A DNA stretch of 47,318 nt from positions 1 through 47,318 of the forward strand of contig JAJTGR010000042.1 in NCBI GenBank assembly GCA_021299375.1. The letters are read 5' to 3'. Under the pieces are notes generated by a model. The model had not been told where the DNA came from. It did no database searches and saw only the letters and a list, made by a program, of their open reading frames with translations. This DNA is from Gemmatimonadota bacterium. GTDB lineage: Bacteria > Gemmatimonadota > Gemmatimonadetes > Gemmatimonadales > Gemmatimonadaceae. This document shows positions 29,053 through 31,935 of the stretch, piece by piece. Made by a program: the position numbers and the translations under genes. Each line of letters opens with the position of its first letter. Position 1 is the stretch's first letter.

Positions 29053-29666
29053 GCGACGCGCGGTACCCGGTGCCGGCGGCGCCGCATCGCGTCGCGCAGG
29101 TCATCGACCGCAGCCGGTTTCTGTGCACGGTCGCGCGCGTCGCGAACACCGACGACGCGCAGGCGTTCATCAAACAAGTCAACGCTGAGTTCCCCGACGC
29201 CACGCACAACTGCTGGGCGTATGTCGTCGGGGCGCCTGGCAGCACCGACCGCATTGGCATGAGCGACGACGGCGAACCGCATGGCACCGCCGGCCGCCCC
29301 ATGCTCACGGTGCTGCTGCACAGCGGCATCGGCGAGATTGCCGCCGTGGTCACACGCTACTACGGCGGCATCAAGCTCGGCACCGGTGGCCTGGTAAAGG
29401 CCTACAGCGGCGCGGTGCAGGAAGCACTGGCCTCGCTGCCCACGATGCAGCGGGTCGACACGGTGACCGTGCGCTTCGAGGTGGCGTACCACTCCGTGGG
29501 CGCCGTGCAGCAGCTGTTGCCCACCGTCGACGCCGAGATCCTCGAGCAGCGCTTCGAGGTCACCGCGGCGTTCACGGTCCTCGTGCCGCGCGATGAGGAG
29601 CCGCGACTGCGCGACGCCATTAAGCATCTCACGCGCGGCTCGGCGGCGTATCGGCTCGACGATTGA
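29049..29666 (+). CDS. YigZ/IMPACT-family protein
   Basis: The 205-residue protein has the IMPACT N-terminal domain: SRFLCTVARVANTDDAQAF, then HNCWAYVVGAPGSTDRIGMSDDGEPHGTAGRPM and VVTRYYGGIKLGTGGLVKAYSGA. The shorter C-terminal ferredoxin-like domain (DUF1949-type) follows. Members are linked to translation control in eukaryotes; the bacterial role is not settled. The GTG start overlaps the helicase stop (GTGA), so the two are translationally coupled. Confidence 0.9.
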
Positions 29667-30249
29667 GCGTCGGCTCGTCCGGGTTCGGCGTGGATTGGTC
29701 CGGCTACATCGCGGTCTCCCGGATATCTGACCAGGCGGGCCCCGCGATGCGCGCCCTGCGATGCGGGCGGCGTGAATCAGGCGGCGTGATGCAGGTGCCA
29801 CAAGGCGGGCGCCGCCTTCGGCGTCGCGATCCACAACGGGAGTACGACCGGATTGCCCTGCGCAGCAGGCCACCCACGCGCGCTCCGCGGGTGGATCATC
29901 CGGGTGGCCCCCGGTGGGGCCTCCCGTGGTGGAGCGCCCCCCGCAGGGGGGCCAGGACGCCATCGCGCCGGGCCCGCACGACCGGGCGCGATTCGCACGG
30001 TGCGTGATGCCGGGGTGGCGCCGGACGTCCTCGACCGCCGGCGGGCGCGCGATTCCGGCCGCCACCCTACCGAACGCCTCCCCACGCGAAACCCCGAAGC
30101 GCCTGCGTTTCTTGCTGCGGCGGATCCGCTGGTACTGATCGATGGAGCTTGGGAGCAGAGCAGCAGAGGAGGAATGGGTGGCGGTGAGTTCCTCCTCCCC
30201 GCCGATCCTCCATTCCGCCCACGGTCAGGCACGAACGAACGGCGCGCGC
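29667..30249. other. Gene-free convergent gap with six consecutive strong hairpins
   Basis: This 583-bp stretch lies between yigZ (plus) and fhs (minus), both of which end here. Open frames inside look like GC-rich noise (Arg/Pro/Gly strings). Strong hairpins follow one another: AAGGCGG-gcg-CCGCCTT (29802-29818); CCACCC-a-CGCG paired with CGCGGGTGG (29870-29894); GGCCCC-cggt-GGGGCC (29906-29921); GCCCCCC-gca-GGGGGGC (29936-29952); ATCGCGCC paired with GGGCGCGAT (29962-29992); GGGTGGCG plus CCGGA paired with TCCGG plus CGCCACCC (30013-30067). It could be a structured RNA, a repeat cluster or a pair of terminators. Confidence 0.6.
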
Positions 30250-31935
30250 TCAGCTGAGTCCCTCGATCGTCCCGTCCCGGCGCAGCCGCATCCCCTCCGC
30301 CGCCGGCGTCTTCGCCAGCCCCGGCATCGTCATGATGTCGCCGCACTTGGCCACCACGAAACCGGCGCCAGCGCTGCCGTACACCTCGTTCACGGTGATG
30401 CGGAACCCCGTGGGGACGTTCAACCGCGACGCATCGTCCGTCAACGAGTATTGCGTCTTCGCCATGCACACCGGCGTCTCCCCCATGCCGTTCGCCTCCA
30501 GCCAGTCGATGGCCTTCTCCGCGGCAGGGGAGAAGTCGACGCCGTCGGCGCCGTACACCTTCTGCGCTACGGTGCGGATCTTCTCCCGAATGGGACGTGC
30601 GCTGTCGTAGAGCGGGCGGAACGACGCGCGCCGCGCATCGAGCAGCGCCAGCACCTCCTGCGCGAGTGCTTCACCGCCGGCACCGCCCTCAGCCCATACA
30701 TTTGCGAGTGCCACCGGGACGCCGAGTGACGTGACATAGTCGGCCACCATCCTGAGCTCGGCCTCACTGTCGCTGAGGCGACGGTTGATGGCCACCACCA
30801 CCGGCACCCCGAACTGCTGTACGTTGCGCACGTGATGCGCCACGTGCGGCAAGCCGCGCTCGAGCGCGCCGAGATCCTCGCGATCGAGTTCGGACTTGGG
30901 CACGCCACCCTGCATCTTGAGCGAGCGCACCGTCGCCACCAGTACCGCCGCCTCGGGCGTGAGCCCGCCCGCGCGGCACTTGATGTCGAAGAACTTCTCG
31001 GCGCCCAGGTCGCTTCCGAAGCCGGCTTCCGTGACGACGATGTCGCCCAGCGCGAGCCCGGCGCGCGTGGCCACCAGGCTGTTGCAGCCGTGCGCGATGT
31101 TGCCGAATGGCCCGGCATGCAGAATGGCCGGCCCCCCTTCGAGCGTCTGAACGAGATTGGGGCGCAACGCCTCCTTGAGCAGCAGGGTCATGGCGCCGGT
31201 CGCCCCCAGGTCCCGCGCGCGCACGGGCCGCTTGTCCTTGCCCGCCGTGGTGCCCACGATGATGTGGCCGAGCCGCTGCTCCAGATCCTCGGCATCGGCA
31301 GCGAGGGCGACGATGGCCATGATCTCGCTGGCCGGAATGATGACCCAGCGTTCCTCGCGCATCACACCGTTGCCGGCGCCCACCCCGATGATCGCACTGC
31401 GCAGCGCCCGGTCGTTCATGTCGATCGTGCGCGGCCACGTGATCGCCTTGGGGTTGAGGCCCAAGGCGTTGCCGTGGTACAGGTGGTTATCCAGCATCGC
31501 CGACAGCAGCGCATGGGCACTGGCGATGGCGTGGAAATCACCCGTGAAGTGCAGGTTGATGTCGTCCATTGGCAGCACCTGCGAGAACCCGCCCCCGGCC
31601 GCCCCTCCCTTGACGCCGAACACCGGCCCCAGACTCGGCTCGCGCATGCAGAGCACCGCGGTGTGCCCCAGCCGGCGCAGCGCCTGCGACAGCCCCACGC
31701 TTACGGTGCTCTTGCCTTCGCCGGCCGGCGTCGGGTTGATGGCGGTGACCAGGACCAGCCGCCCCCGGGCCGGCGCTGCCGCGAGCGACAACGGGAGTTT
31801 CGCCTTGTACTTGCCGTACAGGTCGATGTCGTCTTCACTGAGCCCGAGGCCAGCCGCGACCTCGCGAATGGGGCGCATGGTCGCCCGCTGGGCGATTTCG
31901 ATATCGGTGGGGATCGCAGAGGGGGTAGCCGTCAT
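30250..31935 (-). CDS. fhs: Formate--tetrahydrofolate ligase
   Basis: The 561-residue enzyme has the usual family length. The ATP-binding P-loop is in INPTPAGEGKSTVSVGLSQAL. Other conserved blocks are CMREPSLGPVFGVKGGAAGGG, MDDINLHFTGDFHAI, NDRALR and EAGFGSDLGAEKFFDIKCR. It makes 10-formyl-tetrahydrofolate from formate, ATP and tetrahydrofolate, feeding purine and formyl-Met synthesis. I chose the ATG at 31935, which gives the family N-terminus (TDIEIAQRATMRPI); an upstream in-frame ATG at 31983 would add 16 unlike residues. It is divergent from the NAD(P)-binding gene, with a 53-bp gap. Confidence 0.96.
   Translation of the reverse strand: MTATPSAIPTDIEIAQRATMRPIREVAAGLGLSEDDIDLYGKYKAKLPLSLAAAPARGRLVLVTAINPTPAGEGKSTVSVGLSQALRRLGHTAVLCMREPSLGPVFGVKGGAAGGGFSQVLPMDDINLHFTGDFHAIASAHALLSAMLDNHLYHGNALGLNPKAITWPRTIDMNDRALRSAIIGVGAGNGVMREERWVIIPASEIMAIVALAADAEDLEQRLGHIIVGTTAGKDKRPVRARDLGATGAMTLLLKEALRPNLVQTLEGGPAILHAGPFGNIAHGCNSLVATRAGLALGDIVVTEAGFGSDLGAEKFFDIKCRAGGLTPEAAVLVATVRSLKMQGGVPKSELDREDLGALERGLPHVAHHVRNVQQFGVPVVVAINRRLSDSEAELRMVADYVTSLGVPVALANVWAEGGAGGEALAQEVLALLDARRASFRPLYDSARPIREKIRTVAQKVYGADGVDFSPAAEKAIDWLEANGMGETPVCMAKTQYSLTDDASRLNVPTGFRITVNEVYGSAGAGFVVAKCGDIMTMPGLAKTPAAEGMRLRRDGTIEGLS

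What the first reader, a model, noticed from the sequence alone, without database searches (positions are those of the whole stretch)
29802..30067. Six consecutive GC-rich hairpins in a gene-free convergent gap
Between yigZ and fhs, six perfect or near-perfect stems (6-13 bp) follow each other within 266 bp, the last with 13 bp and a single bulge. One terminator pair would need two. The density suggests a structured RNA or a cluster of palindromic repeats. High GC raises the chance rate, so this needs a statistical test.
Basis: seen in the sequence. Interest (0 to 1): 0.55.

Follow-up and report, generated by a model that had tools for sequence, protein, structure and literature searches.

The report
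Decayed mobile-DNA repeat, ISL3-type MITE
The hairpin-rich gap is one of about 28 scattered, decaying copies of a small non-coding jumping element that an ISL3-type transposase most likely moved, so it is an ordinary genomic parasite and not a structured RNA.

Summary
The six GC-rich stems are real and denser than chance (4 of 1000 dinucleotide shuffles reach six; 1 of 354 tiles of the window). They are not the unit, however. They lie inside a 432-bp dispersed repeat, window 29672-30103, present in at least 28 places in this genome. It was found in none of 29 congeners. The repeat has 27-bp imperfect terminal inverted repeats (GGCTCTTCCGGGTTCGGCGTGGG... / GGCTCTTCGGGGTTTCGCGTGGG...) and 8-bp target-site duplications (89 of 112 bases match over 14 copies; shuffle mean 33.6, maximum 64). 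It encodes no transposase. The same termini bound ISL3-family elements in other Gemmatimonas genomes and, decayed, one element here. It is therefore an ISL3-type MITE. An ISL3-mobilised MITE with GGCTCTTCG ends and 8-bp duplications is published in Microcystis (PMC11448079).

The hairpins show no sign of RNA selection: one of 72 consensus pairs has a two-sided change; stem and other positions are equally conserved, 0.933 versus 0.927; the family consensus is not significantly hairpin-rich (26 of 200 shuffles reach it). Verdict: ordinary; a new member of a known kind.

The parts
29672..30103 (+). ISL3-type MITE copy (432 bp), non-coding; strand arbitrary
   Evidence: at least 27 other copies in the genome with matches ending at the same edges; absent from 29 congeners
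29672..29698 (+). left terminal inverted repeat, 2 mismatches to the TIR pattern
30077..30103 (-). right terminal inverted repeat, 2 mismatches to the TIR pattern
29664..29671 (+). left 8-bp target-site duplication TGAGCGTC (begins with the yigZ stop codon TGA)
   Evidence: 5 of 8 match in this decayed copy; 89 of 112 over 14 copies
30104..30111 (+). right 8-bp target-site duplication TGCGTTTC
29735..29818 (+). internal 14-bp variable tandem repeat zone (unit about GGGCGCCGTGATGC), degenerate in this copy
   Evidence: A1 alignment; 2 to 12 units in eight other copies at up to 3 mismatches
29802..30067 (+). the six stems of the finding, all interior to the MITE
   Evidence: stem 29901-29926 is specific to this copy

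Best explanation
The region is a decayed copy of a non-autonomous DNA transposon (MITE). Its ends are ISL3-family inverted repeats. An ISL3 DDE transposase made elsewhere in the cell would have recognised both ends, mobilised the element and inserted it into an 8-bp target, which was duplicated. Here the target overlapped the yigZ stop codon, so yigZ stayed intact. A burst in this lineage after it split from the sampled congeners left at least 28 copies, which have since diverged to 80-93% pairwise identity. The hairpins are GC-rich interior sequence, in part family-wide and in part a chance of this copy. Shown: family, ends, duplications, absence in congeners, shared termini with ISL3 elements, lack of covariation. 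Inferred: mobilisation in trans, the burst, and present immobility (the only long ISL3 transposase found here has a stop codon and lacks one terminus).
For: Dispersed copies with sharp common edges. The TIR pattern at up to 3 mismatches hits 36 places; 35 are ends of repeat copies and the 36th borders the ISL3 transposase on C3 (PF01610 E 3e-72); the reversed-pattern control gives 0. Duplication length peaks only at 8 bp (0.81 matching versus 0.23-0.38 at the other lengths from 4 to 13, most elements counted in both orientations). Unique count: 89 of 112 bases over 14 copies, 11 of 14 copies with at least 6 of 8, 0 of 10000 shuffles. ISL3 elements of Gemmatimonas have ends that start GGCTCTTC (one GGGTCTTC) and match the MITE ends at 17-20 of 24 bases. 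Exact 8-bp duplications flank ISL3 elements in G006 (TCTAAAAG, L239) and Nitrospira L143 (AAAAAATG). No copy in 29 congeners nor in the yigZ-fhs gap of 21 congeners, 13 of which have gaps of 23 bp or less. Published precedent with the same ends and duplication length (PMC11448079; passages and section 21 read).
Against: The interior shows no similarity to the ISL3 elements compared beyond the ends, so it is not a simple deletion derivative of those. At 432 bp it is longer than the 30-300 bp given for MITEs in PMC4133298 (passage), though under the 'usually < 500 bp' of PMC11448079. This copy's own duplication is weak (5 of 8). The transposase copy on C3 has only one recognisable full TIR, and its contig may be chimeric at the other end. 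Two 90%-identical ISL3 elements of congeners (L240, L137) show no 8-bp duplication. Mobility was not observed. The own-genome assembly is in 116 contigs.
Confidence: 0.95

Rival explanations
1. A structured non-coding RNA or bidirectional terminator, whose six stems are its working parts.
For: Stem density in this copy exceeds shuffles; it lies between convergent genes.
Against: 1 of 72 consensus pairs with a two-sided change, covariation term +1.75; stems and other positions equally conserved; in 16 of the 19 other aligned copies more than 5% of shuffles reach the copy's stem load; no Rfam hit; absent from the same gap in 21 congeners.
Confidence: 0.02
2. A MITE whose copies were kept because the hairpin-rich interior ends transcription or protects mRNA 3' ends where it lies between genes.
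For: The window copy lies between convergent genes; MITEs are often co-transcribed and may affect transcripts (PMC4133298 introduction, passage read).
Against: Copies decay about as far as their own target-site duplications (79% match, against 87% mean pairwise identity of copies), a rough comparison that gives no clear sign of constraint. The 17 contexts examined are mixed and the coding test was crude. No U-tract terminators found.
Confidence: 0.08
3. A REP/BIME-type or CRISPR-like cluster of short palindromic repeats.
For: Several stems in a row in an intergenic gap.
Against: The stems differ from each other; direct repeats within the gap are short and few; the repeated unit in the genome is the whole element with TIRs and duplications.
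Confidence: 0.01

Closest known systems
187-nt ISL3-type MITE of Microcystis aeruginosa PCC 7806 (PMC11448079)
   Same: Non-coding, about 31-33 copies per genome, inverted ends starting GGCTCTTCG, 8-nt duplications, matched to ISL3 transposases in the same genome, stem-loop fold.
   Different: Ours is 432 bp (375-529 bp among the 14 copies with both ends), with longer TIRs, a GC-rich interior with a 14-bp tandem repeat, and copies diverged to 80-93% rather than identical.
ISL3-family insertion sequences of Gemmatimonas (L239, L240, L137-L139)
   Same: Ends GGCTCTTC...GTGGG; 8-bp duplication (exact in L239).
   Different: They carry a transposase and are 1.2-1.4 kb; the interior is unrelated to the MITE.
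352-bp and 215-bp TIR pairs in congener G023 (L235, L236)
   Same: Same type of ends, no room for a transposase, GC-rich; L235 has a 7-of-8 duplication.
   Different: Interior unrelated beyond the ends for L235; a separate ISL3-type MITE family.

Membership tests
MITE (non-autonomous DNA transposon) | short, multi-copy, no transposase gene | tested here: met
   432 bp, at least 28 copies; consensus reading frames show no transposase by eye, and 14-bp repeat-number changes break any frame
MITE (non-autonomous DNA transposon) | terminal inverted repeats | tested here: met
   (I5)
MITE (non-autonomous DNA transposon) | target-site duplication of fixed length | tested here: met
   8 bp
ISL3-mobilised element | ends match those of ISL3 elements | tested here: met
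   17-20 of 24 bases to complete Gemmatimonas ISL3 ends, 21 of 24 to the C3 element's intact end
ISL3-mobilised element | 8-bp duplication as in ISL3 elements | tested here: met
   L143; L239; ISPpu12a 8 bp in a table passage of PMC4133298
ISL3-mobilised element | transposition by an ISL3 transposase | not testable with these tools
   needs an experiment
structured RNA | compensatory base changes in stems | tested here: not met
   1 of 72 pairs
structured RNA | match to an Rfam family | tested here: not met
REP/BIME palindromic repeats | a short palindromic unit is the dispersed unit | tested here: not met

The most novel reading that the evidence does not exclude
The long, tandem-repeat-bearing interior of this ISL3-type MITE, unrelated to any ISL3 element compared here, was captured from elsewhere and gives the copies a role at gene ends in this one Gemmatimonas species, for example as a co-opted bidirectional terminator.
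Probability: 0.05. Interest if true: 0.4.

Novelty: new member of a known kind. Interest (0 to 1): 0.15.

Why it matters
It explains a hairpin-rich gap without a new RNA, and warns that stem density in GC-rich intergenic DNA can come from decaying MITEs. It adds an ISL3-type MITE family in Gemmatimonas; my paper searches 'Gemmatimonas + insertion sequence + MITE' and 'Gemmatimonas + ISL3' returned no paper in the held library.

Tried and rejected
Structured RNA: global fold, Rfam, consensus fold and pair counts, conservation of stems against the rest and hairpin load of the consensus and 20 copies gave no support. The covariation measure was taken from RNAalifold's own structure only; the count of structure pairs was not used. 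Coding: the consensus has stop-free frames on the - strand, but this is expected at this GC and the tandem units of 14 bp shift the frame; no protein-family search was run on it. Terminator scan: none found. Other hosts: exact-pattern scans of genome contigs and viral contigs found 0; a distant DNA search of plasmids and phages found none. Weak hits in relatives (best E 1.9e-5, 64 bp) were judged chance; only 6 candidates per genome were scored there, and 23 per genome. Copies dropped: C110 (35 bp) is not counted as a copy. A1 holds 20 of the 28 counted copies (L058-L065, truncated or fragmentary, left out). The duplication count uses the 14 copies with both ends recognised; L054's ends are offset by an indel and it scored 3 of 8 but was kept. 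One search's n of 25 counts most elements in both orientations, and one search corrects this by hand. In one search the test for coding flanks was crude and I draw nothing firm from it.

Full report
Observation. The six stems exist and are denser than in dinucleotide shuffles: six perfect stems of at least 6 bp, shuffle mean 2.4 +/- 1.2, 4 of 1000 reach six; the highest of 354 tiles of the window. The minimum free energy of the 266 nt is only mildly low (z -1.42 and -1.51).

What it is. A DNA search of the own genome with 29667-30250 returns 33 matches that merge into the window copy plus 27 clear others and one 35-bp scrap (40 of 155 candidates were scored, so there may be more). The matches end again and again at query positions 5-6 and 437, i.e. 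window 29672 and 30103. Aligned with flanks, the copies have sharp ends: left GGCTCTTCCGGGTTCGGCGTGGGTTGG, right ...CCACCCCACGCGAAACCCCGAAGAGCC, which are imperfect inverted repeats of each other (also seen as pair I5). Outside the ends lie 8-bp direct repeats. Over candidate lengths 4-13 only 8 stands out, with 0.81 matching (most elements counted twice). For 14 distinct copies 89 of 112 bases match, against a shuffle mean of 33.6 and a maximum of 64 in 10000; 11 of 14 have at least 6 of 8. In the window the duplication is TGAGCGTC / TGCGTTTC (5 of 8), the left copy starting with the yigZ stop codon. The flank octamers average 49% GC, while the window around the site is near 68-70%, so targets look AT-leaning.

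Distribution. 1 of 30 genomes of the genus has the repeat at E <= 1e-8: the own one. Among 99 relatives only short weak hits appear (best E 1.9e-5). In 21 of 29 congeners yigZ and fhs lie on one fetched locus; none of the 21 gaps matches the element, and 13 are 23 bp or shorter, two of them overlaps. The other eight gaps are 191-483 bp and hold something else that I did not identify. The element is therefore most simply a gain in this lineage; the empty state is seen, though not base by base, since the remaining 146 bp of the window's gap (30104-30249) match no congener gap either.

Who moved it. The TIR pattern (up to 3 mismatches) hits 36 places in the own genome; 35 are repeat ends and one, C3:17142, lies close to an ISL3 transposase domain (PF01610 match C3:17215-17934, E 3e-72, one in-frame TAG). 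That element lacks a full second TIR: its other end shows only the octamer GGCTCTTC followed by unrelated bases. A second ISL3 fragment lies on C41. Their element ends are GGCTCTTCAGGAA[A/T]TSGAGTGGGT on one side and GGCTCTTCTGGGTTTGTAGTGGGT or GGGTCTTCCGGGTTTGTGGTGGGT on the other; L240 and L137 show no 8-bp duplication. A further ISL3-type TIR pair in G006 (L239, 1394 bp) has an exact TCTAAAAG duplication (its transposase was not separately checked), and a Nitrospira ISL3 element (L143) has AAAAAATG. Congener G023 has two TIR pairs 352 and 215 bp long with related interiors, a second ISL3-type MITE family. The interior of the window's family resembles none of the ISL3 elements compared, apart from the ends.

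Do the stems matter? RNAalifold on 20 copies gives 72 pairs, 1 with a change on both sides, covariation term +1.75, i.e. unfavourable. Stem positions and the other core positions are equally conserved, 0.933 (n=100) and 0.927 (n=206). The consensus has four stems totalling 28 bp against 17.9 +/- 8.2, with 26 of 200 shuffles reaching it. Of the 20 copies, the window alone has no shuffle reaching it; three others (L041, L043, L053) have 5-8 of 200 and the remaining 16 have 11 or more. The stem at 29901-29926 arose in this copy by four adjacent changes, 29907-29910. Copies have 80.4-92.5% pairwise identity (mean 86.8%) and the duplications 79%, as expected for decay after an old burst; this comparison is rough.

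Known kind. PMC11448079 (passages and section 21 read) describes a 187-nt Microcystis MITE with GGCTCTTCG ends, 8-nt duplications and about 31-33 copies, assigned to ISL3 by the same reasoning. PMC4133298 (passages read) lists ISPpu12a of the ISL3 family with an 8-bp duplication. Searches for Gemmatimonas with ISL3 or with 'insertion sequence' and MITE found no paper. I file the finding as a new member of a known kind, of low interest.

Noticed in passing
window 29907-29910: Four adjacent bases differ from the family consensus and create the perfect arm of the stem 29901-29926; this looks like a template-switch (quasi-palindrome) mutation.
   Followed up: partly
L045 about 589-759 and other copies: A 14-bp tandem unit (about GGGCGCCGTGATGC) varies from 2 to 12 units in the eight copies counted, a variable-number repeat inside the MITE.
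   Followed up: partly
L235 516-867 and L236 494-708 (congener G023): Two related TIR pairs with ISL3-type ends and no room for a transposase, 352 and 215 bp; the shorter looks like an internal deletion: a separate ISL3-type MITE family.
   Followed up: partly
L125 2895-2920 and L039 1-26: The truncated ISL3 element on C3 and the MITE at the start of contig C114 share the same 18-bp outer flank; the contigs overlap by 27 bases there, so one junction may be an assembly fork or a repeated target (C5 holds a similar stretch).
   Followed up: partly
window 30168-30219: A separate hairpin between the MITE and fhs folds slightly better than shuffles on both strands (z -1.9 and -2.1) and may be the real gene-end signal.
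   Followed up: no
left flanks of L040 and L060: Both copies sit just beside an ACATCAGGA...TCCTGATGT palindrome, perhaps a terminator or another repeat (seen).
   Followed up: no
L012, L013, L015, L018, L020, L028, L032, L037: Eight of 21 congeners have 191-483 bp between yigZ and fhs that hold neither the MITE nor anything like the window's remaining gap.
   Followed up: no
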